Origin: Pseudorhodoferax sp. Leaf267
GTDB taxonomy: Bacteria; Pseudomonadota; Gammaproteobacteria; Burkholderiales; Burkholderiaceae_C
Assembly: GCF_001422405.1 (NCBI RefSeq)
Contig: NZ_LMMV01000012.1
Location: forward strand, 536,830-600,829
Length of the DNA stretch: 64,000 nucleotides
Direction of reading: 5' to 3'
Part shown: piece after piece, positions 1 to 40,070 of the stretch
Position numbering within the stretch: position 1 is the first letter of the stretch
Layout of the letters: the number at the start of each line of letters is the position of its first letter
Program-made: the position numbers and the translations under genes
The notes under the pieces: model-generated
Told to the model about the DNA's origin: nothing
Seen by the model: only the letters and a program-made list of their open reading frames with translations
Database searches by the model: none

Positions 1-1
1 G

Positions 2-772: not shown

Positions 773-1763
<991 letters not shown>

Positions 1764-22314: not shown

Positions 22315-22361
22315 GGCCTGCTGCTGCGCCCGGACGCCCGCCCCCGGTCAGCGCGGGCAAC

Positions 22362-23876
22362 CTAGCGCCCCAGCACCGTGCGCTGCAGCCGCTCCGCGGT
22401 CGTCACGGCGCCGAGCAGATGCAGGCAGGCCGCGCCGAACACAGGGCACAGCTCCGCCCAGCCGCTTGCATCCGGCGTGACGCAGCGCGCGTGCACACCG
22501 GCCGCGCGCAGCGCGTCCACGGCGTGCCGCGCATCGTGCAGCAGGTGGCCGGCTTCGTAGACGTCGATGTCCCAGGGCTGCCCGTCGCTGAACAGCAGCA
22601 GGCTGCGGCGTGGGCCGGGCTCTGCGGCCAGCAGCGTGTGGGCATGGCGCAGGGCTGCGCCCAGGCGCGTGGAGTGGCGCACCGGCAGGGCGGCCAGGGC
22701 TTGCGCGTCGCAAGGTGCGCCGAAGGCTACGGCGCGCCAGTAGGCGACCGCCGCCCGCCCGTTCGACGAGAAGCCGTGCACGGCCACGCGCGCGCCCTGT
22801 GCCGCGAGCTGGCGGGCCAGCCGCAGCGCGGCCTGCTGCTGGGCCGCCTGCACGGTCTGCCGGCCGGCGCCCCAGGGCGCCAGGGTGGATTGCGACAGGT
22901 CGAGCAGCAGCAGCACGCTGGCGCGCGTGGCGCGGGCCGGGCGGTGGAACAGGCGCGTGTCCCAGGCCTGGGCGCGGCGCCGGTCCACCAGCGCGGCCAC
23001 GGCGGCCTGCAGGTCCAGCGTCTCGCCTTCGGTACCGAGCGCGGGCCGCGCGCGGGGCGGCGCTGGTGGGCGCGCGTGCAGCGTGCGCTCCTGCACGCGG
23101 CACCAGTCCGGGCGCCACAGGCCCGCTCGCGCGTGCCATTCGCCATACGGCAGTTCGCGCAGGACGGCGGCGGTCGGCGCGGCAGGGGCTTGCACGGCGG
23201 CGCCAGCCTGCGCCGGCAGCGGCTCGGCGTCCGTGCAGCGGCCGTGGTCCCACAGGTAGCTGTGGTCGTCGCGGTAGGCGGCCTGCGGGCGGTAGGCCGT
23301 GTCGAAGGGCACGCGCATCTGGCCCAGCATGTTGGCCAGCACCAGCGCGCACTGGGCGAAGTCGGCCGCCGGCGCCCCGGCAGGCAGCGACCAGAACGCC
23401 TGTTGCGCGCGCTGCACCCAGTGGTGGCCGTCCCGGGCCTGCGGGTCGGCCAGCACACGGTCGAGCCGGTTCATCAAGGCCGTGAAGCCCAGGCCCTGCG
23501 GGGCCTCGCGCGGCAGTCCGGCGGCAAACCAGCGGCGCACGCCGGGCAGGGCGGCGACCAGCAGCCGTTCGACGCGCGCGTCCTCGACGGCGGACAGCAC
23601 GGCCAGGGCCAGCGGCTTGCGGCCGCGTGCGTCCTGTCCGGCGCGTGAATGCAGCAAATGCGCCGCGGCGTGGGCGATGGCGGCCTGGCGCTCGGCGGGT
23701 GCGGCGCTCGCTGGCAGCAGCAACTGCGTGGGCGCCAACACGGGCTGGGCCAGGCCGGCGTGTTCGGCGACCGGCGTGTCGCGCCCTGCCAGCGCGCGCA
23801 GCAGCAGGCAAAGCATCTCAGGCCTGCCTTGCTCCCTCTCGCACAGGGCGGGGGGCCGCATCGCGCCGCCACTCAC
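22362..23876 (-). CDS. VWA-domain protein, NorD/CbbO-like
   Basis: About 504 residues. The C-terminal von Willebrand A domain has the MIDAS motif LLLDLSQST with a downstream Thr (HSTRLGAALRHA) and SDGQPWDID, as in NorD/CoxE-type partners of MoxR ATPases. The N-terminal half is helical and unassigned. GTG 23876 overlaps the end of the ATPase gene (GTGA). NorD pairs with NorQ to activate nitric-oxide reductase, but no norCB is in this window. Here the pair follows amiE, so amidase maturation is the contextual guess. Confidence 0.8.
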   Translation of the reverse strand: MSGGAMRPPALCEREQGRPEMLCLLLRALAGRDTPVAEHAGLAQPVLAPTQLLLPASAAPAERQAAIAHAAAHLLHSRAGQDARGRKPLALAVLSAVEDARVERLLVAALPGVRRWFAAGLPREAPQGLGFTALMNRLDRVLADPQARDGHHWVQRAQQAFWSLPAGAPAADFAQCALVLANMLGQMRVPFDTAYRPQAAYRDDHSYLWDHGRCTDAEPLPAQAGAAVQAPAAPTAAVLRELPYGEWHARAGLWRPDWCRVQERTLHARPPAPPRARPALGTEGETLDLQAAVAALVDRRRAQAWDTRLFHRPARATRASVLLLLDLSQSTLAPWGAGRQTVQAAQQQAALRLARQLAAQGARVAVHGFSSNGRAAVAYWRAVAFGAPCDAQALAALPVRHSTRLGAALRHAHTLLAAEPGPRRSLLLFSDGQPWDIDVYEAGHLLHDARHAVDALRAAGVHARCVTPDASGWAELCPVFGAACLHLLGAVTTAERLQRTVLGR

Positions 23877-24688
23877 GGATACAACGCATCCACCAGCGCC
23901 CGCAGCGCCTGCACGCGCTCGGGCGCATCGGACCAGGCCTGCACCAGCGCCAGCTCGCAGGCCCAGCGTGGCGCCAGGCCCTGCACCATGAGCTGTGCCG
24001 TGCGCACCAGCATGCGCGTGGACAAGGCCTCGGCCGCCTCGGCGTCCAGCGCGCGCGTGCGTTCGGCCAGGCCCACCAGGCGCATGGCGGCCTCGTGCGC
24101 CAGGCCCGACTCGTGCACCACGATGGCGACCTCGGCCACGACGGGCGGGGGCGTGAAGGCCAGCGCCACCAAGCGCTGCCGCGTGGCCGGCCGCAGGTCG
24201 CGGCCTGGCTGCGGGTTGTACGAGACCACGAGCTGGAAGCGCGGATGCGCCGCCAACAGCTCGCCGTTGCGCTCCAGCGGCAGCACGCGCCGCGTATCGG
24301 CCAGCGGGTGCAGCACGGTCAGCGCATCGGGCCGGGCCTCGATGAGTTCGTCCAGGTAGCACAGGCCGCCGTGACGCACGGCCAGCGTGAGCGGGCCGTC
24401 CTGCCAGCGCGTGCCATCGGCGTCGATGAGCCAGCGGCCCAGCAGGTCGCCGGCCGTCATGTCCTCGTGGCAGGCCACCGTGACGAGCGGCAGGCCCAGC
24501 GCATGCGCCATGTGCTCCACGAAGCGCGTCTTGCCGCAGCCGGCCGGGCCCTTGAGCAAGAGCGGCAGGCGCAGCGCATGGGCCGCGCGGAACTGCGCCA
24601 CCTCGTCGCCCACGGCCAGGTAGTAGGGCGCGCGCGCCACGCGCCACTCGGCCAGCGCGTCCGCCTCCACTTCGGCCAGCGCGCTCAC
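23873..24688 (-). CDS. MoxR-family AAA+ ATPase, NorQ/CbbQ-like
   Basis: A 271-residue ATPase of the length usual for NorQ/CbbQ. Walker A is GPAGCGKT, Walker B is LCYLDELIEARPD, and sensor-1 is VVSYNPQPGRDLRPATRQRL. It would remodel or insert cofactors in a client enzyme, together with the VWA protein it overlaps. GTG 24688 (VSALAEVEADALAEW) is chosen because the sequence upstream is not protein-like and overlaps amiE. A 73-base gap separates it from amiE on the same strand. Confidence 0.87.
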   Translation of the reverse strand: MSALAEVEADALAEWRVARAPYYLAVGDEVAQFRAAHALRLPLLLKGPAGCGKTRFVEHMAHALGLPLVTVACHEDMTAGDLLGRWLIDADGTRWQDGPLTLAVRHGGLCYLDELIEARPDALTVLHPLADTRRVLPLERNGELLAAHPRFQLVVSYNPQPGRDLRPATRQRLVALAFTPPPVVAEVAIVVHESGLAHEAAMRLVGLAERTRALDAEAAEALSTRMLVRTAQLMVQGLAPRWACELALVQAWSDAPERVQALRALVDALYP

Positions 24689-24761
24689 GGTTGCACCCTG
24701 CGGCCTGCGGCCCGTCCTGCCAAGCGGGAGCGCGCTGGCCTGGGGCGGCCCGGCGCGGCGC

Positions 24762-25799
24762 TCAACGGTGCTCCGGCAGGCTGTGCGGAATGCCCTCGAT
24801 CGGGCATTCCGGCGTGCCCGGCGTGCCGCGCGTGAAGGCCTCCACCTTCTTGCGCGTGCCCTCGGGGTCGTTGATCCAGTCCGCGTAGAAGCCATACGGG
24901 CAGGCTGCCACGCCGTGCATGTCCTCGCCCGAATTTATCTTGCCGGTATAGCCGCGGTGCAGCAGCTTGTAGAGGTGGTTCTGCGACTGGCCGTTCCTGC
25001 GCGCGTCGCGGATCAGGTGCATCGACAGCTCGGCGTAGTTGATGCCCATCTCTTCCTCGCCGCACTCGCCCAGCGTGCGGCCGTCGAAGCCGATCAGCGC
25101 CGAGTGGCCGAAATACGAGTACACGCCGTCGAAGCCCGTGGCGTTGGCCACGGCCACGTAGCAGTTGTTCATGAAGGCCATGGCCTTGGCCACCAGCACC
25201 TGCTGCTCCTTGGCCGGGTACATGTAGCCCTGGCAGCGCACGATGAGCTCGGCGCCCTTCATCGCGCAGTCGCGCCAGATCTCGGGGTAGTTGCCGTCGT
25301 CGCAGATGATGAGGCTGATCTTCAGGCCCTTGGGGCCGTCGCTCACGTAGGTGCAGTCGCCGGGGTACCAGCCCTCCACCGGCACCCAGGGCATGATCTT
25401 GCGGTACTTCTGCACGATCTCGCCCTGGTCGTTCATGAGGATCAGGGTGTTGTAGGGCGCCTTGTTCGGGTGCTCTTCATGGCGCTCGCCGGTCAGCGAG
25501 AACACGCCCCACACCTTGGCCTGGCGGCAGGCCGCGGCAAAGATCTCGGTCTCTTCTCCCGGGATCGTCGCGGCGGTCTCGTACATCTCCTGGGCGTCGT
25601 ACATGATGCCGTGCGTCGAGTACTCGGGGAACACCACCAGGTCCATGCCCGGCAGGCCGCGCTTCATGCCGACCAGCATCTCGGCGATCTTGCGCGCATT
25701 GGCCAGCACCTCCGCCTTGGTGTGCAGCCGCGGCATCTTGTAGTTGACGACGGCCACGCCGACGCCGTCCTTGCTGCTCGAAATGTCGCCGTGGCGCAT
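24762..25799 (-). CDS. amiE: Aliphatic amidase
   Basis: A 345-residue cytoplasmic nitrilase-superfamily enzyme that hydrolyses short aliphatic amides to acid plus ammonia. The catalytic triad is in the same numbering as Pseudomonas AmiE: Glu59 ([10 protein letters not shown]), Lys134 (KYRKIMPW) and Cys166 ([10 protein letters not shown]). ATG 25799 follows a clear AGGAG site. It diverges from the amide-binding protein gene. The shared gap holds a TACG-N8-CGTA operator 60 bases above this start. First gene of an amiE-MoxR-VWA unit. Confidence 0.97.
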
Positions 25800-25859: not shown

Positions 25860-25875
25860 TACGTTGAATGACGTA
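25860..25875 (+). promoter_or_regulatory. NarL-type palindromic operator, site 1 (amiE / fmdD)
   Basis: TACGTTGAATGACGTA: heptamers TACGTTG and (reverse complement) TACGTCA separated by 2 bases. The -10-like TACCTT begins exactly 23 bases after the site on the rightward side. The site would then sit just above the -35 position, as for an activator of the downstream ABC operon; amiE can share it leftward. The same architecture recurs at 32859 and 34703. Confidence 0.7.
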
Positions 25876-25963
25876 TTCGTCCGACGCGCCGCACCGCATA
25901 CCTTCTGTTGCACCGCAGCACACCACCTTCCGTGCTGCCCCGTTCAACCAAAGGAGTGTGTCG

Positions 25964-27217
25964 ATGTCCGCTGATTCCCGTCCCGATTCCGTCCTGCGCC
26001 GGCGCATGCTGCAGATGGCGGCCATGTCGCCGCTGGCCGGCCTGTCGGCTGCCGCGCTCGCGCAGCAGTTCCCCACGGCCAAGGTCAACACCACCAAGCT
26101 GGCCGTCACCGACACCGAGGTCACCGTCGGCCAGCTGCATTCGGCCAGCGGCACCATGGCGATCTCCGAGACCGGCTCGATCCAGGCCGAGCAGCTCGCC
26201 ATCGACCAGATCAACGCCATGGGCGGCATCCTGGGCCGCAAGATCAAGGTGATCAAGGAAGACGGCGCGTCCGACTGGCCCACCTTCGCCGAGAAGAGCA
26301 AGAAGCTGCTCGTCAACGACAAGACCGCCTGCGTCTTCGGCTGCTGGACCAGCGCGTCGCGCAAGGCCGTGCTGCCGGTGTTCGAGAAGGAGAACGGCCT
26401 CCTGTACTACCCCACCTTCTACGAAGGCCTGGAGCAGAGCAAGAACGTGATCTACACCGGCCAGGAGGCCACGCAGCAGATCATCTGGAGCCTGGACTGG
26501 GGTGCGAAGGAGAAGAAGGCCAAGACCTTCTTCTTGGTCGGCTCCGACTACATCTGGCCGCGCACCTCGATGAAGATCGCGCGCAAGCACATCGAGACGG
26601 TGGGCAAGCTGGGCAGCGTGAAGGGCGAGGAGTACTACCCGCTGGGCCACACCAACTTCAACTCGCTGATCAACAAGATCAAGGTGGCCAAGCCCGACTG
26701 CATCTTCGCGGCCGTGGTGGGTGGCTCCAACGTGGCCTTCTACAAGCAGCTCAAGGCCGCCGGCATCACGGGCGACAAGCAGTTCCTGCTGACGCTGTCG
26801 GTCACCGAGGACGAGATGACCGGCGTGGGCGGCGAGAACTTCGCCGGCTTCTACTCGTCGATGAAGTACTTCCAGTCGCTGGACAACGAGAACAACAAGA
26901 AGTTCGTCGAGGCCTTCAAGGCCAAGTACGGCAAGGACGCCGTGATCGGTGACGTGACGCAGGCCGGCTACCTCGGCCCCTGGCTGTGGAAGGCCGCGGT
27001 CGAGAAGGCCGGCAGCTTCGACGTGGACAAGGTCGTCGCCGCATCGCCCGGCATCGAGCTCAAGACCGCGCCCGAAGGCTACGTGAAGCTGGACGCCAAC
27101 CACCACCTGTGGAGCAAGGCGCGCATCGGCCAGGGCCAGAAGGACGCGAGCTTCAAGGTCGTGGCCGAGTCGTCGGAGCTGATCAAGCCCGATCCCTTCC
27201 CCAAGGGCTACCAGTAA
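25964..27217 (+). CDS. fmdD: Amide/urea ABC transporter substrate-binding protein (FmdD/UrtA-like)
   Basis: A 417-residue periplasmic binding protein for short-chain amides or urea. The leader LRRRMLQMAAMSPLAGLSAAALAQ resembles a Tat signal. Mature motifs match the UrtA/AmiC fold: TVGQLHSASGTMAISE, LAIDQINAMGGILGRKI, VFGCWTSASRKAVLPVFE, GSDYIWPR. ATG 25964 follows AAAGGAG; a longer in-frame start runs into the operator and is rejected. It is a paralogue of UrtA at 34824 and heads a five-gene importer ending at formamidase. Confidence 0.9.
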   Translation: MSADSRPDSVLRRRMLQMAAMSPLAGLSAAALAQQFPTAKVNTTKLAVTDTEVTVGQLHSASGTMAISETGSIQAEQLAIDQINAMGGILGRKIKVIKEDGASDWPTFAEKSKKLLVNDKTACVFGCWTSASRKAVLPVFEKENGLLYYPTFYEGLEQSKNVIYTGQEATQQIIWSLDWGAKEKKAKTFFLVGSDYIWPRTSMKIARKHIETVGKLGSVKGEEYYPLGHTNFNSLINKIKVAKPDCIFAAVVGGSNVAFYKQLKAAGITGDKQFLLTLSVTEDEMTGVGGENFAGFYSSMKYFQSLDNENNKKFVEAFKAKYGKDAVIGDVTQAGYLGPWLWKAAVEKAGSFDVDKVVAASPGIELKTAPEGYVKLDANHHLWSKARIGQGQKDASFKVVAESSELIKPDPFPKGYQ

Positions 27218-27226
27218 GCACCGAGA

Positions 27227-27311
27227 CCCTCACCCCGACCCTCTGCCGCGAGCGGGAGAGGGAGCGACTCCAGAATCCTCGCCCCCTCGGGGGAGAGGGC
27301 AGGGTGAGGGG
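27227..27311. repeat. REP-like imperfect palindrome, family A
   Basis: The stretch begins CCCTCACCCCGACCCTCT and ends AGAGGGCAGGGTGAGGG, so its ends are inverted copies. An inner CCGCGAGCGGGAGAGGG and CCCCCTCGGGGGAGAGG form hairpins. The same family occurs at 32370-32488 and 40028-40064. All lie between genes of the amide/urea transport block. Confidence 0.7.
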
Positions 27312-27341
27312 GCAGCCCCGCCAACCGACAGAGATCCACAC

Positions 27342-28256
27342 ATGACCCTTTCCGACATGTTCAACATCGGCCTGATGCAGGGCTTCGCGGGCCTGTCGCT
27401 GTTCGCCGTGCTGCTGCTGATGGGGCTGGGCCTGGCCATCATCTTCGGCCAGATGGGCGTCATCAACATGGCGCATGGCGAGTTCATGGCGATTGGCGCC
27501 TACACCATCTACATGGCTTCGACCTTCACCGAGAGCCACTGGCCCGGGGCCATCGCGGTGTACTTCCCGATCGCCATCGTGCTGGCCTTCTTCGTCGCCT
27601 TCTTCTTCGGCTGGATCATGGAATGGGCCCTGATCCGCCACCTGTACAAGCGCCCGCTGGACACGCTGCTGGCCACCTGGGGCGTGAGCCTGGGCCTGCA
27701 GCAGTGCTTTCGCACCTTCATCGGCCCCAAGGAGGTCAGCCCCACGCTGCCCGAGTGGCTGATGGGCGCCTGGGCCCCCATCGAGGGCGTGGACATCCCG
27801 CTCAACGGCCTGTTCGTGCTGGCGCTCACGGCGCTGGCCACGGGCGGCGTGCTGCTGGCCATGCACAAGAGCCGCTGGGGTTTGCGCGTGCGCGCCACGG
27901 TCAGCAACCGCGTGATGGCCAACGCCACGGGCATCGACACCATGAAGACCGACCGGCTCACCTTTGCCATCGGCTGCGGCATCGCCGGCGTGGCGGGCGC
28001 GGCCTTCACCACCATCGGCTCCACGGGGCCGACCTCTGGCTCGCTCTACATCGTCGACGCCTTCCTGGTCGTCACCTTCGGCGGCGCGGCCAGCCTGTTG
28101 GGCACGGTGGTCTCGGCCTTCGGCATCGCGCAGACGCAGTCCATCACCGAGTTCTTCATGACCGGCTCCATGGCCAAGGTGCTGACGCTGTCCTTGATCG
28201 TGCTGATTCTGATGATGCGGCCGCAGGGTCTCTTCGCTTCCAAAGTCCGTCGGTAG
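27342..28256 (+). CDS. fmdE: Amide/urea ABC transporter permease (UrtB/LivH-like)
   Basis: A 304-residue permease of the branched-chain amino-acid/urea family. The core motif GLGLAIIFGQMGVINMAHGEFMAIGAY and the loop LYKRPLDTLLATWGVSLGLQQ are plain, with about eight helices. Unlike UrtB at 36311 it has no N-terminal exported extension. It follows fmdD after a repeat-containing gap and should pair with the next permease. Confidence 0.88.
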   Translation: MTLSDMFNIGLMQGFAGLSLFAVLLLMGLGLAIIFGQMGVINMAHGEFMAIGAYTIYMASTFTESHWPGAIAVYFPIAIVLAFFVAFFFGWIMEWALIRHLYKRPLDTLLATWGVSLGLQQCFRTFIGPKEVSPTLPEWLMGAWAPIEGVDIPLNGLFVLALTALATGGVLLAMHKSRWGLRVRATVSNRVMANATGIDTMKTDRLTFAIGCGIAGVAGAAFTTIGSTGPTSGSLYIVDAFLVVTFGGAASLLGTVVSAFGIAQTQSITEFFMTGSMAKVLTLSLIVLILMMRPQGLFASKVRR

Positions 28257-28319
28257 CCATGACCCACCCTCGTTTCTTGCGCACTGCGTGTAGCCGAATC
28301 CTCCCCCAGGGGAGCAACA

Positions 28320-28352
28320 CCAGCGGCCCGGCAAAGCCGCTTCCGCGGTGTT
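28320..28352. repeat. Dispersed intergenic repeat, family B
   Basis: CCAGCGGCCCGGCAAAGCCG and the following CTTCCGCGGTGTTC, preceded by CTCCCCCAGGGGAG, closely match 36142-36174. It lies in the 156-base gap between the two permease genes. The two copies share a CCAGCGGCCyGGCArAGCC core. Confidence 0.6.
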
Positions 28353-28412
28353 CTCCGCATGGCTCGGCTGTGTGGTCCATGCCGTTTCCTTTGATCTGAA
28401 TTGGAGCCACAG

Positions 28413-29621
28413 ATGGACTCTCTCAAAGCACTGATCCACCGCTACCAGCTCGGCAGCGTGCTGTTGCTCACGCTGTTCCTGGCGGTCGTGCTGCCGCTGT
28501 CGCTGGACATCTTCCGGCTCAACCTGGTCGGCAAATACCTGACCTATGCCTTCGTCGCCGTGGGCCTGGTCATGGTCTGGGGCTATGGCGGCGTGCTGAG
28601 CCTGGGGCAGGGCGTGTTCTTCGGCCTGGGCGGCTACGCCATGGCCATGTTCTTGAAGCTCGAAGCCTCGGACCCGGAGACCACCAAGATCCAGTCCACC
28701 CCCGGCATTCCGGACTTCATGGACTGGAACCAGATCACCGAGCTGCCGCTGATGTGGCTGCCGTTCAAGAGCCTGCCGCTGACCTTGATCCTGGTCGTGG
28801 CCGTGCCCATGGCGCTGGCCTGGCTCATCAGCTTTGCGATGTTCAAGCGGCGCGTGGGCGGGGTCTACTTCGCCATCATCACGCAGGCCGTGGCGCTGAT
28901 CCTCACGGTGCTGATCGTGGGCCAGCAGGGCTACACGGGCGGCGTGAACGGCATGACCGACCTGAAGACCCTGGCCGGCTGGGACACGCGCACCGACAGC
29001 GCCAAGACCATCCTGTACTTCGTGTGCGTGGCGCTGTTGATCGCCAGCATCGTGCTGTGCCGCTGGATCCAGACCAGCAAGCTCGGCACGCTGCTCCTGG
29101 CCATGCGCGACAAGGAAGACCGTGTGCGCTTCTCGGGCTACGACGTGGCCAACTTCAAGGTGTTCACGTTCTGCCTGGCGGCTGCTCTGTCGGGCATCGG
29201 TGGGGCGCTGTTCACGCTGCAGGTGGGCTTCATGTCGCCCACGCTGGTCGGCATCGTGCCCTCCATCGAGATGGTGATCTACGCGGCGGTGGGCGGGCGC
29301 ATGAGCCTGGTCGGTGCGGTGTATGGCGCGATCCTCGTCAACGCCGGCAAGACGCTGTTCTCCGAGAGCTTTCCCGACCTGTGGCTGTTCCTCATGGCAG
29401 CCCTGTTCATCGGCGTGACCATGGCCTTCCCGATGGGCCTGGCCGGGCTGTGGGACGAGAAGATCCGCCCCTGGTGGCGCGAGCGCAGTGCGGCGCGCAA
29501 GGCCTATGGCGACAAGGTCGTGGCCGCCAAGACGGCGCCGCACGCTGCATCGGTGGCCGCGGCCGTGGCCGTGGCCGAGCAGGCCCAACCCGAAGCCGGC
29601 CTGCATGGCCAGCGCGCCTGA
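28413..29621 (+). CDS. fmdF: Amide/urea ABC transporter permease (UrtC/LivM-like)
   Basis: A 402-residue second permease with about ten helices. Family motifs: YAFVAVGLVMVWGYGGVLSLG, GVYFAIITQAVALILT, GYTGGVNGMTDLKTL, AMRDKEDRVRFSGYDVANFK and EMVIYAAVGGRMSLVGAVYG. ATG 28413 follows TTGGAG. The last 30 residues are Ala/Val-rich and variable. It would form the membrane channel with the preceding permease. Confidence 0.9.
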   Translation: MDSLKALIHRYQLGSVLLLTLFLAVVLPLSLDIFRLNLVGKYLTYAFVAVGLVMVWGYGGVLSLGQGVFFGLGGYAMAMFLKLEASDPETTKIQSTPGIPDFMDWNQITELPLMWLPFKSLPLTLILVVAVPMALAWLISFAMFKRRVGGVYFAIITQAVALILTVLIVGQQGYTGGVNGMTDLKTLAGWDTRTDSAKTILYFVCVALLIASIVLCRWIQTSKLGTLLLAMRDKEDRVRFSGYDVANFKVFTFCLAAALSGIGGALFTLQVGFMSPTLVGIVPSIEMVIYAAVGGRMSLVGAVYGAILVNAGKTLFSESFPDLWLFLMAALFIGVTMAFPMGLAGLWDEKIRPWWRERSAARKAYGDKVVAAKTAPHAASVAAAVAVAEQAQPEAGLHGQRA

Positions 29622-29638
29622 CCCTCCGAAAGCCCCCC

Positions 29639-30382
<744 letters not shown>

Positions 30383-30383
30383 C

Positions 30384-31085
30384 ATGACCATTGAAATTCT
30401 CAAGGTCGAAGACATCCACACAGCCTACGGCCAGAGCGAGGCGCTGCACGGCATCTCGTTCGTGGGCCACGCCAACGAGACGGTCGCCATCATGGGCCGC
30501 AACGGCATGGGCAAGACCACGCTGTTCAAGAGCCTGATGGGCATCCTGCCGCTCAAGAGCGGGCGCGTCGAAGTGGCGGGGCAGGACGTGTCCAAGGACG
30601 AGAGCTTTCGCCGCGTGGCCAAGGGCATCGCCTACGTGCCGCAGGGCCGCATGATCTTTCCCACGCTGACGGTGGAAGAGAACATCCAGACCGGCCTGCA
30701 GAGCAGCCCCAGCCTGCGCGTGCCCGACGAGATCTACGCGCTGTTCCCCGTGCTGTTCGACATGAAGGGCCGCAAAGGCGGCAACCTGTCGGGTGGGCAG
30801 CAGCAGCAGCTGGCGATTGCGCGCGCACTCGTCACCAACCCCAAGGTGCTGCTGCTCGACGAGCCGACCGAGGGCATCCAGCCTTCCATCATCAAGGACA
30901 TCGCCAAGGCGCTGAACGAGATCCGGCGCATGAAGGGCATCACGATCGTGGTGTCCGAGCAGGTGCTGAGCTTCGCGATGGACGTGGCCGACCGCTTGTT
31001 CGTGATCGAGGGCGGCCGACTCGTGCACGAGACCGCGCGCGACAAGACCGACATCGCGCACATCAAGAAATACCTTTCCGTCTGA
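30384..31085 (+). CDS. Amide/urea ABC transporter ATP-binding protein (UrtE/LivF-like)
   Basis: A 233-residue ATPase with Walker A GRNGMGKTT, signature NLSGGQQQQLAIARAL, Walker B VLLLDEPTEGIQPS and a VVSEQVLSF H-loop in which Gln replaces His, as in LivF/UrtE proteins. It completes the five-gene importer and lies 22 bases ahead of fmdA, so uptake and hydrolysis are one unit. Confidence 0.92.
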   Translation: MTIEILKVEDIHTAYGQSEALHGISFVGHANETVAIMGRNGMGKTTLFKSLMGILPLKSGRVEVAGQDVSKDESFRRVAKGIAYVPQGRMIFPTLTVEENIQTGLQSSPSLRVPDEIYALFPVLFDMKGRKGGNLSGGQQQQLAIARALVTNPKVLLLDEPTEGIQPSIIKDIAKALNEIRRMKGITIVVSEQVLSFAMDVADRLFVIEGGRLVHETARDKTDIAHIKKYLSV

Positions 31086-31107
31086 ACGTCAACCAAGGAG
31101 AAATGAC

Positions 31108-32337
31108 ATGGCCGAAACCCTGATCAAGGTCGACCTGACCCAGCCCGCACCCAGCAACGAGAACGTGCACAACCGCTGGCATCCCGACATTCCCATGGCC
31201 TGCTGGGTCAAGCCCGGTGACGACTTCATCCTGGAAACCTACGACTGGACCGGCGGCTTCATCCAGAACAACGACAGCGCCGACGACGTGCGCGACATCG
31301 ACCTGACGACGGTGCACTACCTGAGCGGCCCGGTGGGCGTGAAGGGCGCGCAGCGCGGCGACCTGCTGGTGGTGGAGCTGCTGGACATCGGCGCCAAGGA
31401 CGACAGCCCCTGGGGCTTCAACGGCTTCTTCAGCAAGAAGAACGGCGGCGGCTTCCTGACCGAGCACTTTCCGCAGGCGCAGAAGTCGATCTGGGACTTC
31501 CACGGCATGTTCACCACTTCGCGCCACATCCCCGGCGTGAAGTACGCGGGCCTGATCCACCCCGGCCTCATCGGCTGCCTGCCCGACCCGGCCATGCTGG
31601 AGACCTGGAACACGCGCGAACAGGCGCTGATCGATTCCGACCCCGCCACCAGCGGCCTGGCCAACCCGCCCTTTGCGGGCACGGCACACATGGGCAAGCT
31701 GACCGGCGACGCCGCCGCCAAGGCCGCGGCCACGGGCGCGCGCACCGTGCCACCGCGCGAGCACGGCGGCAACTGCGACATCAAGGACTTGTCGCGCGGC
31801 TCCAAGATCTTCTTCCCGGTCTACGTGGACGGCGCGGGCCTGTCGGTGGGCGACCTGCACTTCAGCCAGGGCGACGGCGAGATCACCTTCTGCGGCGCGA
31901 TCGAGATGGCCGGCTGGGTACACATGAAGGTCAGCCTGATCAAGGGCGGCATGGCCATGTACGGCATCAAGAACCCGATCTTCAAGCCCAGCCCCATCGT
32001 GCCGACCTACAACGACTACGTGATCTTCGAAGGCATCAGCGTGGACGAGAGCGGCAAGCAGTACTACCTGGATGTGAACGTGGCCTACCGCCAGGCCTGT
32101 TTGAATGCCATCGAGTACCTGAAGAAGTTCGGCTACTCGGGCGCGCAGGCTTATTCCATCCTGGGCACTGCGCCCGTGCAGGGCCATATCAGTGGCGTGG
32201 TCGACGTGCCCAACGCCTGCGCCACGCTGTGGCTGCCGACGCAGATCTTCGAGTTCGACATCAACCCTAGTGCTGCTGGGCCTACGAAGTTCATCGATGG
32301 GTCGGTGCAGATGCCGCTGTCGCCGGATCTGAGCTGA
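31108..32337 (+). CDS. fmdA: Formamidase / acetamidase
   Basis: A 409-residue cytoplasmic enzyme of the FmdA/AmdA family that hydrolyses formamide to formate and ammonia. Family features include HNRWHPDIPMACWVKPGDDF, GVKGAQRGDLLVVELLDIG, the metal-site-like PREHGGNCDIKDLSRGSK, and DLHFSQGDGEITFCGAIEM. Length matches Methylophilus FmdA. The start has AAGGAG 8 bases upstream. It closes the amide-transport operon. Confidence 0.96.
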   Translation: MAETLIKVDLTQPAPSNENVHNRWHPDIPMACWVKPGDDFILETYDWTGGFIQNNDSADDVRDIDLTTVHYLSGPVGVKGAQRGDLLVVELLDIGAKDDSPWGFNGFFSKKNGGGFLTEHFPQAQKSIWDFHGMFTTSRHIPGVKYAGLIHPGLIGCLPDPAMLETWNTREQALIDSDPATSGLANPPFAGTAHMGKLTGDAAAKAAATGARTVPPREHGGNCDIKDLSRGSKIFFPVYVDGAGLSVGDLHFSQGDGEITFCGAIEMAGWVHMKVSLIKGGMAMYGIKNPIFKPSPIVPTYNDYVIFEGISVDESGKQYYLDVNVAYRQACLNAIEYLKKFGYSGAQAYSILGTAPVQGHISGVVDVPNACATLWLPTQIFEFDINPSAAGPTKFIDGSVQMPLSPDLS

Positions 32338-32369
32338 CTCCGACCCTGCTCCACGGGCGCCGCTGTCGT

Positions 32370-32488
32370 GCTCCCCTCCCCCCTCGCGGGGGAGGGGCCG
32401 GGGGAGAGGGGGCCGCAGAACAGGCGCAGTGCTTGCGGCCGATGCCGACCCCCCTCTCCCCAACCCTCTCCCGCGAGGGGAGAGGGAG
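32370..32488. repeat. REP-like composite palindrome, family A
   Basis: Two hairpins (CTCCCCTCCCCCCTCGCGGG with GGAGGGG; CCCTCTCCCGCGAGGGGAGA) flank a centre, and the outer arms GGGGGAGAGGGGG and CCCCCCTCTCCCC are inverted copies. It fills the gap between fmdA and the GIY-YIG-like gene and could end the fmd transcript. Confidence 0.7.
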
Positions 32489-32532
32489 CAAGACAGGCCC
32501 GGGTCTCAACCGCCACGGCATGATCTGCGCCC

Positions 32533-32856
32533 ATGCCCCGGCCCCACTACCACGTCTACGTCGTCCAGCTTGCCGACCCGGTGTGGAACAGCGCGCGCTT
32601 TCGGCGCGCCAACCCCGGCTACCAGCTCGGCAAACCCTTCGTCTACGTCGGCATGACAGGCCTGGACCCGGACATCCGCTTCGACAAGCACAAGGCCGGC
32701 ATCCAGGCCAACCGCTTCGTGATGCTGTATGGCGAACGCCTGCTGCCCACGCTGTACGAGCGCTACAACCCCATGGCCTACGAGCCCGCGCGCGAGATGG
32801 AGGTGGAGCTCGGCATCCGGCTTCGTGCGCTCGGCTACGGCGTCTGGCAGGGTTGA
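32533..32856 (+). CDS. Small GIY-YIG-like protein
   Basis: A 107-residue protein whose order of motifs fits a GIY-YIG nuclease fold: HVYVVQL, then PFVYVGMTG, RFDKHKAG and a Glu-rich helix EPAREMEVELGIRLRALGYG. The GIY and YIG strands are approximate, so activity is uncertain. No clear ribosome site is seen. It lies between the fmdA repeat and operator site 2 and may be a bystander. Confidence 0.6.
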   Translation: MPRPHYHVYVVQLADPVWNSARFRRANPGYQLGKPFVYVGMTGLDPDIRFDKHKAGIQANRFVMLYGERLLPTLYERYNPMAYEPAREMEVELGIRLRALGYGVWQG

Positions 32857-32858
32857 AC

Positions 32859-32874
32859 TACGTTGTTTGACGTA
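32859..32874 (+). promoter_or_regulatory. NarL-type palindromic operator, site 2 (fmdB)
   Basis: TACGTTGTTTGACGTA differs from site 1 at only two bases, both in the centre. The -10-like CAGAAT starts 23 bases after it, and fmdB starts 63 bases after it. This marks a separate promoter for fmdB and probably the antiporter. Confidence 0.7.
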
Positions 32875-32936
32875 GTGCCTGTCGCCGCCGTACTGCGCAG
32901 AATGTTCCTGACTTCCCCACAGAACTGGACCTGCCG

Positions 32937-33281
32937 ATGCCCACTTACGACTACGACTGCCCCGGCTGTGGCGGCTTCGACGCCATCCGCAGCCTAAGCC
33001 AGCGCAATGAGCCTGCCGCCTGCCCGGATTGCGGCGCGGCTTCCCTGCGCGTGTTCGTGAGCGCGCCGCGCCTGGCCCTGATGGACGGCGGCACGCGCGC
33101 CGCCATCGGTGTGAACGAGCGCGCGCGCCACGAGCCCAAGAGCTCGCGCGACTACCAGCGCATGCGGCATCCGGCCGGATGTGGCTGCTGCAGCACCAGC
33201 GGCAAGCGCTCGGCCACGGTGACGGCGCCGAGCGGGGCCAAGGCGTTCCCGAGCAAGCGGCCCTGGATGATCAGCCACTGA
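32937..33281 (+). CDS. fmdB: FmdB-family zinc-ribbon protein
   Basis: A 114-residue protein with the FmdB zinc ribbon at its start (MPTYDYDCPGCGGFDAI ... ACPDCG), a proposed regulator in the formamidase regulon of methylotrophs. An extra Cys cluster (HPAGCGCCSTSG) lies near residue 80. The protein has its own operator-type promoter. Its exact role in FmdA expression or assembly is not known. Confidence 0.88.
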   Translation: MPTYDYDCPGCGGFDAIRSLSQRNEPAACPDCGAASLRVFVSAPRLALMDGGTRAAIGVNERARHEPKSSRDYQRMRHPAGCGCCSTSGKRSATVTAPSGAKAFPSKRPWMISH

Positions 33282-33428
33282 GCGGCTGCGCGGGCCTGGC
33301 GGCTTGTCCCTGGCCCGGTAGGGTGCAATGGCGCGTTGCCTATGATGTGCGTCGGGTGGCGTGCCATGTCGGCGGGTCAGGTTCATGCGAAGGTCGGGCC
33401 GCCTCGCGGATCGTTGACGCCCGACCCC

Positions 33429-34688
33429 ATGGAACACACCACCATCCAGACCATCGCCGCGACCCTGTTCGCGCTCGCCCTGGTCCACACCTTCGCCGCC
33501 AAGCAGTTCGAGCGGCTGTCGCACCGTTACCCCCGCCATGCCGGCCTGTTCCACCTGCTCGGCGAGGTCGAGGTGGTATTTGGCTTCTGGGCCATCGTGC
33601 TGGTGCTCGCCATGGCCGTGGTGGCAGGAGGTGGGCCGGCGCTGCAATACGCCGAGTCGCGCAACTACACCGAGCCGCTGTTCGTCTTCGTCGTGATGGT
33701 GGTGGCCGCGTCGCGGCCCATTCTGCTGACCGTGGTCGCCGTGGTCGACCGGCTGGCGCGGCTGTCGCCGTTGCCCACGCCGCTGGCCACGGCCTGGCTG
33801 GGCCTGGCGGCCGTGCCGCTGCTGGGCTCGCTGATCACCGAGCCGGCGGCCATGACCATCGCTGCGCTGATGCTGGCGCCGCAGATCTTCCGCCCGCAGG
33901 TGCCCGAGCCCGTGAAGTACCTGGCGCTCGGCGTGCTGTTCGTGAACGTGTCCATCGGCGGCACGCTGACCTCGTACGCGGCGCCGCCCGTGCTGATGGT
34001 GGCCCAGACCTGGAACTGGGACAGCGCCTTCATGTTCGCGCAGTTCGGCTGGAAGGCGGCCATCGCAGTGCTCATCAACGCCACGGTAGCGGCGTGGGCG
34101 CTGCGTCAGCACCTGGCCGGTGTGGCGCTGCCCAAGGATTCGTCCCCGGCGAGCGGCATGCCGTTGACGGTGGTGGCGGTGCACATCGCGCTCCTGGCCG
34201 GCATCGTGCTCATGGCGCACCACCCGGTCGCGTTCCTGGCGCTGTTCCTGATGTTCATGGGCTACACGCAGGCCTACGACAAGCACCAGAGCCCGCCGAT
34301 CCTGAAGGAGGCGCTGCTGGTGGCCTTCTTCCTGGCCGGTCTGGTGGTGCTGGGCGGCATGCAGGCGTGGTGGCTGCAGCCGCTGGTCTCCAGCCTGGAG
34401 CCGCTGGCGCTGTTCTTCGGCGCGCTGGGGCTGACCGCCATCACAGACAACGCCGCGCTGACCTACCTGGGCTCGCTGATCGTCGGCATTTCCGACGAAT
34501 CCAAGTACATGCTGGTGGCTGGTGCCGTAGCCGGTGGCGGCCTGACCGTGATCGCCAACGCGCCCAACCCGGCGGGCGTGGCGCTGCTCAAGCGCGGCTT
34601 CGCCGACGAAACGGTCAGCGCCGGCGGGCTGCTGCTGGGCGCGCTGGGACCGACGCTGGTGGCGGCGGCGGCGTTCATGTTGCTTTGA
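33429..34688 (+). CDS. Putative Na+/H+ antiporter
   Basis: A 419-residue membrane protein with about 11 helices, matching the putative Na+/H+ antiporter family by segments such as GSLITEPAAMTIAALMLAPQIF, NVSIGGTLTSYAAPPVLMVA and GALGLTAITDNAALTYLGSLI. Acidic and Asn residues lie inside helices (TEPAAMT, TDNAALT). It follows fmdB by 147 bases on the same strand. A pH or cation role during ammonia release is a contextual guess. Start ATG 33429. Confidence 0.8.
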   Translation: MEHTTIQTIAATLFALALVHTFAAKQFERLSHRYPRHAGLFHLLGEVEVVFGFWAIVLVLAMAVVAGGGPALQYAESRNYTEPLFVFVVMVVAASRPILLTVVAVVDRLARLSPLPTPLATAWLGLAAVPLLGSLITEPAAMTIAALMLAPQIFRPQVPEPVKYLALGVLFVNVSIGGTLTSYAAPPVLMVAQTWNWDSAFMFAQFGWKAAIAVLINATVAAWALRQHLAGVALPKDSSPASGMPLTVVAVHIALLAGIVLMAHHPVAFLALFLMFMGYTQAYDKHQSPPILKEALLVAFFLAGLVVLGGMQAWWLQPLVSSLEPLALFFGALGLTAITDNAALTYLGSLIVGISDESKYMLVAGAVAGGGLTVIANAPNPAGVALLKRGFADETVSAGGLLLGALGPTLVAAAAFMLL

Positions 34689-34702
34689 AGGCCTGCCAGC
34701 CG

Positions 34703-34718
34703 TACGCCACCTGGCGTA
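34703..34718 (+). promoter_or_regulatory. NarL-type palindromic operator, site 3 (urtA)
   Basis: TACGCCACCTGGCGTA is a perfect palindrome outside the central CACCTG region: heptamer TACGCCA, spacer CC, heptamer TACGCCA inverted. TAGGAT (-10-like) begins 23 bases later, as at sites 1 and 2. urtA starts 105 bases after the site, leaving a leader of about 70 bases. Confidence 0.7.
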
Positions 34719-34823
34719 TAGGCCCGCCACCGGGTTCTCCCTAGGATCACCCCTGTCCGTCAGACACCGCCCACAGCGCTGTAGGACGAACCAGATCCAT
34801 CCAACCACCGGGAGCTTTTCCAG

Positions 34824-36086
34824 ATGCAACGTCGCTTCACCCTCAAGGCCGTCACTGCGGCTGCCGTCTTCGCTGGCTTTGCCGCCGTTCCCGCCTTCGC
34901 CCAGGACACGATCAAGGTCGGCGTGCTGCACAGCTTGTCGGGCACCATGGCGATCTCCGAGACCGTGCTCAAGGACACGGTGCTGATGGCCATCGACGAG
35001 ATCAACGCCAAGGGCGGCGTGCTCGGCAAGAAGCTCGAGCCCGTGGTCGTCGACCCCGCCTCCAACTGGCCGCTGTTCGCCGAGAAGACCAAGCAGCTGC
35101 TCGGCCAGGACAAGGTGGCCGTGATGTTCGGCTGCTGGACCTCCGTGTCGCGCAAGTCCGTGCTGCCCGTCGTCGAGGAAATGAACGGCCTCTTGTTCTA
35201 CCCCGTGCAGTACGAGGGCGAAGAGCTGTCCAAGAACGTGTTCTACACGGGCGCAGCCCCCAACCAGCAAGCCATCCCCGCGGTGGACTACCTGATGAGC
35301 AAGGCCGGTGGCGGCGCCAAGCGCTGGGTGCTGCTGGGCACCGACTACGTGTACCCCCGCACCACCAACAAGATCCTGCGCGCGTACTTGAAGAGCAAGG
35401 GCGTGGCCGACAAGGACATCGACGAGAAGTACACCCCGTTCGGCCACAGCGATTACCAGACCATCGTGGCCGACATCAAGAAGTTCTCTGCCGGCGGCAA
35501 GACGGCGGTGGTCTCCACCATCAACGGCGACTCCAACGTGCCGTTCTACAAGGAACTGGGCAACGCGGGCCTGAAGGCCAAGGACGTGCCGGTCGTCGCC
35601 TTCTCCGTGGGTGAAGAAGAGCTGCGCGGCGTGGACACCAAGCCGCTGGTGGGCCACCTGGCCGCCTGGAACTACTTCCAGTCGATCAAGAACCCCGAGA
35701 ACACTGCCTTCATCAAGAAGTGGAGCGACTACGCCAAGGCCAAGAACATCGCCGGCCACAAGGACAAGCCGCTGACCAACGACCCGATGGAAGCCACCTA
35801 CATCGGCGTCTACATGTGGAAGCAGGCCGTCGAGAAGGCCAAGTCCACCGACGTGGACAAGGTCATCGCCGCCATGGCCGGCCAGACCTTCAAGGCACCG
35901 TCGGGCATCGTGTCCAAGATGGACGAGAAGAACCACCACCTGCACAAGTCGGTGTTCATCGGCGAGATCAAGGCCGATGGCCAGTTCAACGTGGTGTGGA
36001 AGACGCCCGGCCCTGTGCAGGCCAAGCCCTGGAGCCCGTACATCGAAGGCAACGACAAGAAGAAGGACGAGCCAGAAAAGAAGTAA
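34824..36086 (+). CDS. urtA: Urea ABC transporter substrate-binding protein
   Basis: A 420-residue periplasmic urea-binding protein. The leader (MQRRFTLKAVTAAAVFAGFA, cleavage near AFAQ) has an RRFTLK Tat-like core. Hallmarks are VLHSLSGTMAISETVLKDT, FGCWTSVSRKSVLPVVEE, NGLLFYPVQYEGEE, LLGTDYVYPRTTN and a Lys-rich end. Paralogue of the FmdD-like protein. First gene of a complete urtABCDE set; no urease genes lie in this window. Confidence 0.96.
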   Translation: MQRRFTLKAVTAAAVFAGFAAVPAFAQDTIKVGVLHSLSGTMAISETVLKDTVLMAIDEINAKGGVLGKKLEPVVVDPASNWPLFAEKTKQLLGQDKVAVMFGCWTSVSRKSVLPVVEEMNGLLFYPVQYEGEELSKNVFYTGAAPNQQAIPAVDYLMSKAGGGAKRWVLLGTDYVYPRTTNKILRAYLKSKGVADKDIDEKYTPFGHSDYQTIVADIKKFSAGGKTAVVSTINGDSNVPFYKELGNAGLKAKDVPVVAFSVGEEELRGVDTKPLVGHLAAWNYFQSIKNPENTAFIKKWSDYAKAKNIAGHKDKPLTNDPMEATYIGVYMWKQAVEKAKSTDVDKVIAAMAGQTFKAPSGIVSKMDEKNHHLHKSVFIGEIKADGQFNVVWKTPGPVQAKPWSPYIEGNDKKKDEPEKK

Positions 36087-36310: not shown

Positions 36311-37912
36311 TTGCGACGCTGGACACGAAAGCTATGCGCCGGGCTGGCGCTGTGGGGGGCGGCCATGCTGCCGGCCCACGCACTGACGGATGCGCAGGCC
36401 CATGCGATGGCGGCCGGCGAAGCCGAGACGCGCATCGAGGCCATCGCCAAGGCCGTGACGGCCGCGGTGGAGCAGGCCGACGAGAAGACCGCCGCCTTCC
36501 TGCAGGCGCTGTCGGACGACGCGGTCAAGACCACGGCGGACAAGGCCATCGTGCTCAAGGACGACAAGGGCTATGACCCCGTGACCGGTGCCGAAGTGAA
36601 GGTGCCCGACGACGCCGAAGACGTCATCAACAACAACCTGATGCGCAGCGAGCTCGAAGTCGCGCTGGCCGCGCTGCAGATCGTGAACCCCGACGAGCAG
36701 GTGCGCGGCGACGCCGTGAACGCACTGCTGAAGGCGCCATCCGAGGCGCGCCTGCCGCTCATCGAGAAAGCCCTGGCTGCCGAGAAGAACGCCGCGATCC
36801 GCGCCAAGCTGGAACTTGCCCGCTCGGCCTCGCAGCTCGGCAGCGCCGACCCGGCCAAGCGCCTGATCGCTGCCAAGGCCCTGGCCGACAGCAAGACGCC
36901 CGACACCAAGCTGCTGCTCAACGAGCGCATGGCCGAGGAAGAGGACGCGGCCGTCAAGAAGCAGCTCGAGGCCTCGATCAGGAGCATCGACGAAGGCCTG
37001 GTCTGGGGCGAGCGCCTGGGCCAGGCGTTCACGGGCATCAGCCTGGGCAGCATCCTGCTGCTGGTGGCGCTGGGCCTGGCCATCACCTACGGGCTGATGG
37101 GCGTGATCAACATGGCGCATGGCGAGCTCATGATGATCGGCGCCTACGCCACCTACCTCATGCAGGGCGTGTTCCAGCGCTGGCTGCCCGAGTCGGCGTT
37201 CGGCTGGTACCTGGTGGCTGCGATCCCGGTGTCGTTCCTCGCGTCGGCCCTGGTGGGCGCGGCGCTGGAGCGCAGCGTGATCCGCTTCCTGTACGGCCGC
37301 CCGCTCGAAACACTGCTGGCCACCTGGGGCATCAGCCTGATGCTGATGCAGCTGGTGCGCAACCTGTTCGGCGCGCAGAACGTCGGCGTGGAAAACCCCG
37401 CCTGGATGAGCGGCGGCATCCAGCTGCTGCCCAATTTGATGCTGCCCTGGAACCGCGTGCTCATCATCCTGTTCGCGGCCCTGGTGCTGGCCGGCGTGGC
37501 CTTCCTGATCGGCAAGACGCGGCTGGGCCTGTTCGTGCGCGGCGTCACGCAGAACCGGCCCATCGCCTCCTGCATGGGCGTGAATACGGCGCGCATCGAC
37601 ACCTATGCGTTCGCGCTGGGCTCGGGCATCGCCGGGCTGGCCGGCTGCGCGCTGAGCCAGGTCGGCAACGTGGGGCCCGACCTGGGCCAGAGCTACATCG
37701 TCGACTCGTTCATGGTCGTGGTGGTCGGCGGCGTGGGCCAGCTGGCCGGCACCGTGTACGCGGCCATGGGCCTCGGAATCCTGAACAAACTGTTCGAAGG
37801 CTGGGCCGGCGCCGTGCTGGCCAAGATCGCGGTGCTCGTGTTGATCATCGTCTTCATCCAGAAGCGCCCGCAGGGCATCTTCGCGATGAAGGGCCGCAGC
37901 GCGGAGGCATGA
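36311..37912 (+). CDS. urtB: Urea ABC transporter permease UrtB
   Basis: A 533-residue protein. A signal peptide (RRWTRKLCAGLALWGAAMLPAHA) is followed by a helical, HEAT-like exported region of about 200 residues (repeated NALLKAPSEARLPLIEKAL-type helices), which is the known UrtB extension. The LivH-type permease follows (about 235-530): GLAITYGLMGVINMAHGELMM and GRPLETLLATWGISLMLMQ. TTG 36311 is chosen from a GGGAG site and the signal peptide right behind it; upstream frame is repeat sequence. Confidence 0.93.
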   Translation: MRRWTRKLCAGLALWGAAMLPAHALTDAQAHAMAAGEAETRIEAIAKAVTAAVEQADEKTAAFLQALSDDAVKTTADKAIVLKDDKGYDPVTGAEVKVPDDAEDVINNNLMRSELEVALAALQIVNPDEQVRGDAVNALLKAPSEARLPLIEKALAAEKNAAIRAKLELARSASQLGSADPAKRLIAAKALADSKTPDTKLLLNERMAEEEDAAVKKQLEASIRSIDEGLVWGERLGQAFTGISLGSILLLVALGLAITYGLMGVINMAHGELMMIGAYATYLMQGVFQRWLPESAFGWYLVAAIPVSFLASALVGAALERSVIRFLYGRPLETLLATWGISLMLMQLVRNLFGAQNVGVENPAWMSGGIQLLPNLMLPWNRVLIILFAALVLAGVAFLIGKTRLGLFVRGVTQNRPIASCMGVNTARIDTYAFALGSGIAGLAGCALSQVGNVGPDLGQSYIVDSFMVVVVGGVGQLAGTVYAAMGLGILNKLFEGWAGAVLAKIAVLVLIIVFIQKRPQGIFAMKGRSAEA

Positions 37913-39147: not shown

Positions 39148-40016
<869 letters not shown>

Positions 40017-40027
40017 ATTTTCTTGTT

Positions 40028-40064: not shown

Positions 40065-40070
40065 TCTTCC

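What the first reader, a model, noticed from the sequence alone, without database searches (positions are those of the whole stretch)
25860..34718. Three matched NarL-type operators define an amide/urea regulon
Sites at 25860-25875, 32859-32874 and 34703-34718 share the form TACG-N8-CGTA and read as 7-2-7 inverted heptamers (consensus TACGYYR-NN-TGRCGTA), the geometry known for NarL. Each is followed after exactly 23 bases by a -10-like hexamer (TACCTT, CAGAAT, TAGGAT), placing the site just above -35 as for an activator. Each precedes a unit of one pathway: amiE/fmdD, fmdB plus antiporter, urtA. The base pattern and spacing are seen directly; joint control is inference.
Basis: partly seen in the sequence, partly recalled or inferred. 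Interest (0 to 1): 0.85.

Follow-up and report, generated by a model that had tools for sequence, protein, structure and literature searches.

The report
Paired operators for urea and amide
Three short mirror-image DNA sequences in front of urea- and amide-uptake genes look like real docking sites for two related regulator proteins, each partnered with a membrane sensor predicted to be shaped like a nutrient transporter, but they seem to form two separate sets and not one.

Summary
The three sites are where stated, are the only exact TACGYYRNNYRRCGTA in the 6.53 Mb genome, and each lies 23 bases before a -10-like hexamer. In relatives TANNNT starts exactly there in 51 of 81 amide-side and 17 of 27 urea-side promoters.

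The single regulon does not hold as stated. Sites 1 and 2 (TACGT) go with the amide operon and the kinase/regulator pair at 17126-21426; site 3 (TACGC) goes with the urea operon and the regulator at 753-1763, whose kinase begins before the window. In 150 family genomes, class-T sites and the RR2 helix signature each occur in 30, together in 28. In loci chosen by kinase alone, 62 of 67 kinase/FmdD gaps hold a site. Base 5 tracks a helix residue, but the tree has one or two switches and Methylophilaceae have mixed sites.

Both kinases share a sensor predicted to have the NCS1-transporter fold. A related operator precedes a Methylophilus fmd cluster. Binding, ligands and activation are untested. 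Ten paper searches listed no description.

The parts
25860..25875 (.). Operator 1, class T (TACGTTGAATGACGTA), between divergent amiE and fmdD/urtA1
   Evidence: class T at FmdD in 80 of 81
25899..25904 (+). -10-like hexamer TACCTT, 23 bases after operator 1
   Evidence: offset 23 recurs in relatives
32859..32874 (.). Operator 2, class T (TACGTTGTTTGACGTA), before fmdB
   Evidence: a class-T site about 7 kb from the first in 4 of 5 other genus members; an FmdB-side site was seen only in the window
32898..32903 (+). -10-like hexamer CAGAAT, 23 bases after operator 2
34703..34718 (.). Operator 3, class C (TACGCCACCTGGCGTA), before urtA2
   Evidence: class C at urtA2 in 26 of 27
34742..34747 (+). 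-10-like hexamer TAGGAT, 23 bases after operator 3
   Evidence: TANNNT at offset 23 in 17 of 27
1..772 (+). C-terminal part of hybrid kinase HK1; the gene begins before the window (L059 6195-9302)
   Evidence: 53% to HK2 by tblastn; Response_reg domain
753..1763 (+). RR1: Rec + GerE response regulator, helix SPATVKKHLERV
17126..18112 (-). RR2: Rec + GerE response regulator, helix SPRTVNKHLEHV
18113..21426 (-). HK2: hybrid histidine kinase; residues 1 to about 490 predicted NCS1-fold membrane domain, Cys-rich 507-544, HisKA 683-748, HATPase 796-903, Rec 932-1038
22348..23811 (-). Gene after the CbbQ-like ATPase; NorD/CbbO-like is my guess from gene order (recalled), no Pfam match
23873..24691 (-). 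CbbQ/NirQ/NorQ-like AAA+ ATPase
24762..25799 (-). amiE, aliphatic amidase, 60 bp from operator 1
25964..27217 (+). fmdD/urtA1, periplasmic binding protein; NCBIfam calls it UrtA, the name FmdD comes from its place beside fmdA and fmdB
27342..31085 (+). urtB1-urtC1-urtD1-urtE1, ABC transporter (urtD1 and urtE1 named by position only; their Pfam scan did not run)
31108..32337 (+). fmdA, formamidase
32937..33281 (+). fmdB, zinc-ribbon protein
33336..34688 (+). putative Na+/H+ antiporter
34824..36086 (+). urtA2, urea ABC transporter binding protein
36332..40763 (+). urtB2-urtC2-urtD2-urtE2 region (named by position; urtB2, C2 and E2 recur after urtA2 in relatives)

Best explanation
The sites are operators of two paralogous two-component systems. 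[quoted passage not shown] HK2/RR2 acts through class-T operators (half-site TACGTYR; sites 1 and 2) on the amide cluster: fmdD-urtBCDE-fmdA, probably divergent amiE, and fmdB plus the antiporter. HK1/RR1 acts through the class-C operator (half-site TACGCCR; site 3) on the canonical urea urtABCDE operon. Proposed chain: the membrane domain binds amide or urea, the kinase phosphorylates its regulator, and a regulator dimer binds the 7-2-7 palindrome centred near -43 and recruits polymerase to a promoter with a -10 but no evident -35. In this family the two channels are kept apart mainly by heptamer base 5 and by the recognition helix (Arg..Asn in RR2, Ala/Met..Lys in RR1). Shown by computation: the conserved site, fixed -10 spacing, two classes, co-occurrence with the two regulators, predicted fold. 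Inferred: binding, activation, phosphotransfer, ligand, and which residue reads base 5.
For: Position: of 80 loci chosen by kinase similarity alone, 67 have FmdD divergent to the kinase and 62 of those 67 have TACGYYRNNYRRCGTA in the 700 bases before the kinase; of these 66 sites 65 are class T and 1 mixed. Spacing: TANNNT starts 23 bases after the site in 51 of 81 FmdD-side and 17 of 27 urtA2-side promoters, 0-3 at any other offset from 10 to 49, and in 10 of 10 further sites that I picked by hand from distant genomes, including forms the strict pattern misses. Class by gene: urtA2 26 C, 1 T; FmdD 80 T, 1 mixed; FmdA 12 T; AmiE 11 T; kinase 83 T, 1 mixed; FmdB 1 T (many loci were fetched because they hold the motif). 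Co-occurrence in 150 family genomes: class T with TVNKHLE 28 of 30 and 30 (Fisher 1e-25); class C with TVKKHLE 36 of 50 and 50 (2e-12); crossed pairs p 0.39 and 0.20 (shared ancestry not corrected for). Same-genus genome G002 keeps RR1 (TIKKH) and class C but has no exact class-T site, no RR2 ortholog in the protein search and no amide genes in the 19.9 kb read. Fold: model pTM 0.81; best PDB matches CodB (TM 0.75-0.77 on the target, 0.55-0.56 on the query) and Mhp1. Known biology: in Methylophilus sp. QUAN TACGCAAATTGACGTA lies before porin-like gene-fmdA-fmdB-fmdD with TAAGCT 23 bases on, and the same genome has the kinase/regulator pair (L177); in M. [quoted passage not shown]
Against: No binding or expression data. 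Genome-wide abundance does not beat the reversed pattern: class T 40 against 35, class C 55 against 118. The class/residue link is phylogenetically shallow: the Lys rows (23) are one clade, so the switch happened once or twice, and the residue three places earlier changes too. The base-5 rule is not strict: Asn-type regulators of Methylophilus, Methylotenera and a gammaproteobacterial MAG go with mixed sites having one TACGC half (TACGCAA..TGACGTA), and many Pseudomonas have a TACGCAG..TGACGTA beside the class-T site. In the C/TVKKHLE comparison 28 of 150 genomes disagree; helix variants or one-mismatch sites explain 8 (G002, G040, G058, G073, G049, G113, G123, G131), 20 are unexplained, some of them not examined. 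G023 has a class-T site, and G084 and G128 class-C sites, with no relative of RR2 at E 1e-20. G061 has an extra class-T site before urtA2. In the window HK2/RR2 lie 4-9 kb from site 1 with other genes between, and RR1 33 kb from site 3. Site 2 rests on this genus alone. The sensor has no sequence match to NCS1 in Pfam or PDB, and its model rests on 25 related sequences.
Confidence: 0.74

Rival explanations
1. One regulon: a single regulator (or both without distinction) binds all three sites.
For: The two site classes share TACG...CGTA, geometry and the 23-base spacing; the two regulators are 45% identical with similar helices, so cross-binding is plausible; G061 carries a class-T site as well as a C-type one before urtA2; Asn-type regulators elsewhere go with mixed sites.
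Against: Each class is tied to one operon and one regulator in the family; G002 lacks RR2 and class T together but keeps RR1 and class C.
Confidence: 0.17
2. The palindromes are sites for another factor (for example a repressor or a global nitrogen regulator), and the kinase/regulator pairs are only neighbours.
For: No binding data; a few sites of the same pattern lie near unrelated genes; some genomes have the site and no such regulator was found.
Against: The sites accompany the pair in Betaproteobacteria, Pseudomonas, Chelatococcus and Rhizobium, co-occur with its recognition helix and sit at an activator position; no other regulator gene recurs in all three annotated loci read.
Confidence: 0.08
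3. Chance or composition artefact.
For: The reversed-pattern control is as frequent or more frequent genome-wide.
Against: 62 of 67 gaps chosen without the motif contain it; the -10 offset is fixed.
Confidence: 0.01

Closest known systems
CrbS/CrbR (MxtR/ErdR) of Pseudomonas and Vibrio, with the ACTU motif
   Same: Hybrid kinase with a transporter-like N-terminal domain plus LuxR-type regulator; imperfect palindrome at -52 to -36 (passages of PMC5715377), close to the centre near -43 inferred here.
   Different: Sensor there is SLC5 with a STAC domain and the targets are acetate genes; here the best fold is NCS1, the linker is Cys-rich, the operator is TACGYYR-NN-YRRCGTA and the targets are urea/amide genes.
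CbrA transceptor (SLC5-STAC kinase)
   Same: Transporter domain and histidine kinase in one chain (passages of PMC13022988).
   Different: SLC5, histidine, regulator CbrB; the terms NCS1 and nucleobase do not occur in that paper.
Amt-fused ammonium sensor kinase (Kuenenia)
   Same: Nitrogen-compound transporter domain fused to a kinase (start of abstract of PMC5764959 in a listing).
   Different: Amt/Rh type, ammonium.
PrlS/PrlR of Brucella
   Same: Hybrid kinase with an SSS domain and a LuxR-family regulator (passage of the review PMC7918813).
   Different: SSS domain; ionic strength given as the signal.
fmdCABDEF of Methylophilus methylotrophus
   Same: Same kinds of genes; reported induced by formamide and urea (passage of PMC10781810).
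   Different: There a putative positive regulator is encoded in the cluster (FmdB, by recall of the gene names); the data here point to the kinase/regulator pair.
NarL operator
   Same: 7-2-7 inverted heptamers beginning TAC (recalled).
   Different: Heptamer TACGYYR rather than NarL's TACYYMT (recalled).

Membership tests
NarL/FixJ (LuxR-type) response regulators | Receiver domain plus GerE helix-turn-helix | tested here: met
   PF00072 and PF00196 in both regulators; the roughly 115-140 residues between them have no Pfam match
NarL-type operator | Two heptamers in 7-2-7 inverted arrangement | tested here: met
NarL-type operator | NarL heptamer consensus TACYYMT (recalled) | tested here: not met
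   G at the fourth base in all three sites
Hybrid histidine kinase | HisKA + HATPase_c + receiver | tested here: met
NCS1 transporter family | NCS1 (LeuT-like) fold | tested here: met
   predicted model only: pTM 0.81, top matches CodB and Mhp1
NCS1 transporter family | Sequence match to the family | tested here: not met
   no Pfam transporter match up to E 10; no NCS1 chain in PDB sequence searches
NCS1 transporter family | Transport of a nucleobase-like substrate | not testable with these tools
   needs uptake assay
SLC5/STAC kinases (CbrA, CrbS) | SLC5 membrane domain | tested here: not met
   SLC5-type chains rank below NCS1 chains, though they also match (SiaT TM 0.57-0.58 on the target)
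SLC5/STAC kinases (CbrA, CrbS) | STAC domain between transporter and kinase | tested here: inconclusive
   no Pfam match there other than a weak RING-like one (E 9.1); whether Pfam holds STAC was not checked

The most novel reading that the evidence does not exclude
A widespread, unnamed class of NCS1-fold sensor kinases ('transceptors') directly senses urea and short-chain amides in Proteobacteria; a duplication gave two insulated channels, one for amides and one for urea, and in Comamonadaceae and kin these were kept apart by a matched change in one operator base and the recognition helix (Asn with TACGT, Lys with TACGC, His with TACGC[CA]A-NN-TTGCGTA).
Probability: 0.46. Interest if true: 0.8.

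Novelty: new variant of a known kind. Interest (0 to 1): 0.63.

Why it matters
It gives a concrete candidate for the regulator behind formamide- and urea-induction of the fmd cluster, adds a predicted NCS1-fold member to the transporter-kinase fusions, and offers a natural pair of paralogous regulators whose operators differ at one base per half-site, so insulation after duplication can be tested by single exchanges. In the three annotated records read, the kinase is called 'ATP-binding protein' or 'hybrid sensor histidine kinase/response regulator'.

Tried and rejected
Single shared regulon: rejected as stated, because the classes split by operon and by regulator. G061 as proof that RR2 took over urtA2: first read that way because its only strict-pattern site there is class T, then dropped when a proximal C-type site (TACGCCACCTTGCGTA) was found at the usual position and its RR1 ortholog was found with His in the helix. 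Many independent helix/operator switches: rejected, the tree needs one or two. Rarity of the motif as proof: rejected, reversed controls are as common or commoner. Sites near unrelated genes (L016, L023, L034, second site of L045): no neighbour of this pathway found, left unexplained. Sequence search for the sensor domain in Pfam and PDB: no transporter match. AmiC/AmiR-type antitermination was not pursued: both regulators have GerE and no ANTAR match was listed. Papers: ten searches listed no title or abstract describing this kinase, regulator or operator. The nearest is a genome paper that notes a urtABCDE operon with LuxR-family two-component genes in Ectopseudomonas guguanensis (passages of PMC13296017). 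Most subscription papers are not held.
Full report
Observation. The three palindromes are present exactly as written and each is followed after 23 bases by the stated hexamer. The window has 3 TACGN8CGTA against 0.10 expected. In the 6.53 Mb genome the three are the only exact TACGYYRNNYRRCGTA, within 9 kb of each other; ten further places need one mismatch. Frequency alone is weak evidence. In 150 family genomes class T has 40 sites against 35 for the pattern read backwards, and class C 55 against 118 (sums).

Conservation. In the genus, 5 of 6 genomes have at least three sites with the same layout (about 7 kb, then about 2 kb apart); G002 has one. In 150 family genomes, 73 have an exact match. 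In the 30 loci returned there (L010-L039) tblastn put the site before urtA2 in 17, between FmdD and a large kinase in 8, at AmiE in 1, and found no neighbour of this pathway in 4. Longer stretches, mostly chosen because they hold the motif, agree. In 67 of the 80 FmdD is divergent to the kinase, and 62 of those 67 hold the motif in the 700 bases before the kinase. The five misses are L110, L128, L138, L139 and L149: L128 and L138 have a looser TACGN8CGTA, and L139 has a class-T site just outside the stretch searched (716 bases up). Of the 13 loci without that arrangement, 1 has the motif and 3 a looser form before the kinase.

Promoter geometry. Over 81 FmdD-side and 27 urtA2-side sites, TANNNT begins exactly 23 bases after the site in 51 and 17, and in 0-3 at any other offset from 10 to 49. 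These loci share ancestry. None of the 11 AmiE-side sites has TANNNT there; their consensus is NACAAT at that offset. In ten further sites that I picked from distant genomes, including ones outside the strict pattern, TANNNT stands at offset 23 in 10 of 10. If the start is about seven bases after the hexamer, the site centre is near -43; CrbR's motif lies at -52 to -36 (passage of PMC5715377).

Two classes. Class C (TACGCCR-NN-YGGCGTA) stands before urtA2 in 26 of 27. Class T (TACGTYR-NN-YRACGTA) stands before FmdD in 80 of 81, AmiE 11 of 11, FmdA 12 of 12, the kinase 83 of 84, FmdB 1 of 1. The single class-T urtA2 case, G061, has a second, nearer site TACGCCACCTTGCGTA. One class-T site, in G038, precedes a porin. 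In L188-L190 class-T sites lie 1.2-1.5 kb upstream of urtA2, in L188 and L189 before an outer-membrane-like reading frame between site and urtA2 (the L189 protein has no Pfam match). In the window, sites 1 and 2 are class T and site 3 is class C.

Regulators. The two response regulators share Rec and GerE domains and 45% identity. Their recognition helices read SPATVKKHLERV (RR1) and SPRTVNKHLEHV (RR2). Searching the 150 genomes for the codons of TVKKHLE and TVNKHLE gave: class T in 30, TVNKHLE in 30, both in 28; class C in 50, TVKKHLE in 50, both in 36; crossed combinations not significant. The four T/N misses are G023 (no such regulator found), G073 (350 contigs; an RR1-type found), G037 (partial matches only) and G054 (one-mismatch site). 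In the C/K comparison 28 genomes disagree: helix variants explain G002 and G040 (TIKKH), G058 (TVKKQ) and G073 (TAKKH), one-mismatch sites G049, G113 (before its kinase), G123 and G131; 20 are left unexplained, several of them not examined.

Tree and residue. A tree of 93 regulators puts the Lys-type sequences (23 rows) in one clade (98/91) inside the urtA2-linked group, with His-type ones (L171, L172, L180) next and Asn-type ones (Oxalobacteraceae, Methylophilaceae, L175) outside these. My expression left four rows unlabelled (L076, L147, L173, L180); read they are Asn, Asn, Asn and His. L138 has Thr. His-type genomes have urtA2 sites of the form TACGC[CA]A-NN-TTGCGTA (G061, L191, L192). Three Asn-type urtA2-linked regulators go with class T (L188, L189, L190). 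Against a strict rule: Asn-type regulators of Methylophilus, Methylotenera and a gammaproteobacterial MAG go with TACGCAA-NN-TGACGTA, one half with TACGC, and 14 Pseudomonas or Stutzerimonas loci have a TACGCAG-type site beside the class-T one. So base 5 and the helix change together within this family, with one or two switches; it is a correlation. Arg versus Ala/Met three residues earlier changes too. The equivalence to NarL Lys188 is recalled.

Sensors. HK2 (18113-21426) and HK1 (ends in the window near 772 and starts upstream; L059) align through the membrane domain and the invariant Cys-rich stretch (C507 to C544); HK2 continues with HisKA, HATPase and Rec. The model of HK2 residues 1-570 (pTM 0.81, mean pLDDT 79.7, 25 sequences) matches CodB and Mhp1 best, ahead of SLC5 and amino-acid transporters. 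NCS1 members carry cytosine, hydantoin and allantoin (recalled), which makes urea and amides reasonable ligands; that is inference. Nine positions are fixed but different between 18 HK2-type and 7 HK1-type rows.

Reach. In the plasmid collection 517 records match, 40 over at least 80% of the kinase; the 15 listed, at 46-53% identity, are from Paraburkholderia, Chelatococcus, Azospirillum, Roseomonas, Rhizobium, Sinorhizobium and Ensifer. In three annotated records urtABCDE (with formamidase in two) is divergent to kinase and regulator, with TACGTAGAATGACGTA (two) or TACGTCATATGACGTA (one) in the gap; the Chelatococcus regulator has Asp in the helix. In Methylophilus sp. QUAN the order is porin-like gene, fmdA, fmdB, fmdD, transporter genes, preceded by TACGCAAATTGACGTA and TAAGCT 23 bases later. 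In M. [quoted passage not shown]

Verdict. A real and widely conserved regulatory element; two sister systems rather than one regulon; transporter-like sensors that the finding did not mention. The binding steps are inferred.

Noticed in passing
window 22348-25799: amiE is followed by a CbbQ/NorQ-type AAA+ ATPase gene and a further gene without Pfam match; AmiE next to NorQ recurs in at least 13 fetched loci, which suggests a dedicated activase for the amidase.
   Followed up: partly
HK2 residues 507-544 (window about 19795-19908, minus strand): Eight cysteines between the membrane domain and the kinase are invariant in 25 of 25 aligned kinases, a possible metal site.
   Followed up: no
L127, L129, L130, L132-L137, L143, L144, L155, L157, L163 (Pseudomonas/Stutzerimonas): Two sites 22 bp apart (TACGCAG..TGACGTA and TACGTCA..TGACGTA), about two helical turns, in the kinase/FmdD gap, and in most of these a third site before fmdA.
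   Followed up: no
L016, L023, L034, L045 (16706), L184, L185: Palindromes of the same general form (several TACGCYG..CRGCGTA) near genes with no evident link to urea or amides (COX1, LemA, TauE, GGDEF, TonB receptor; L184 and L185 not scanned).
   Followed up: partly
L087 2406-7012: The kinase gene of G054 appears in two pieces about 1.5 kb apart.
   Followed up: no
L062 9943: A class-T site directly before a Gram-negative porin gene, on a different contig from that genome's amide cluster.
   Followed up: partly
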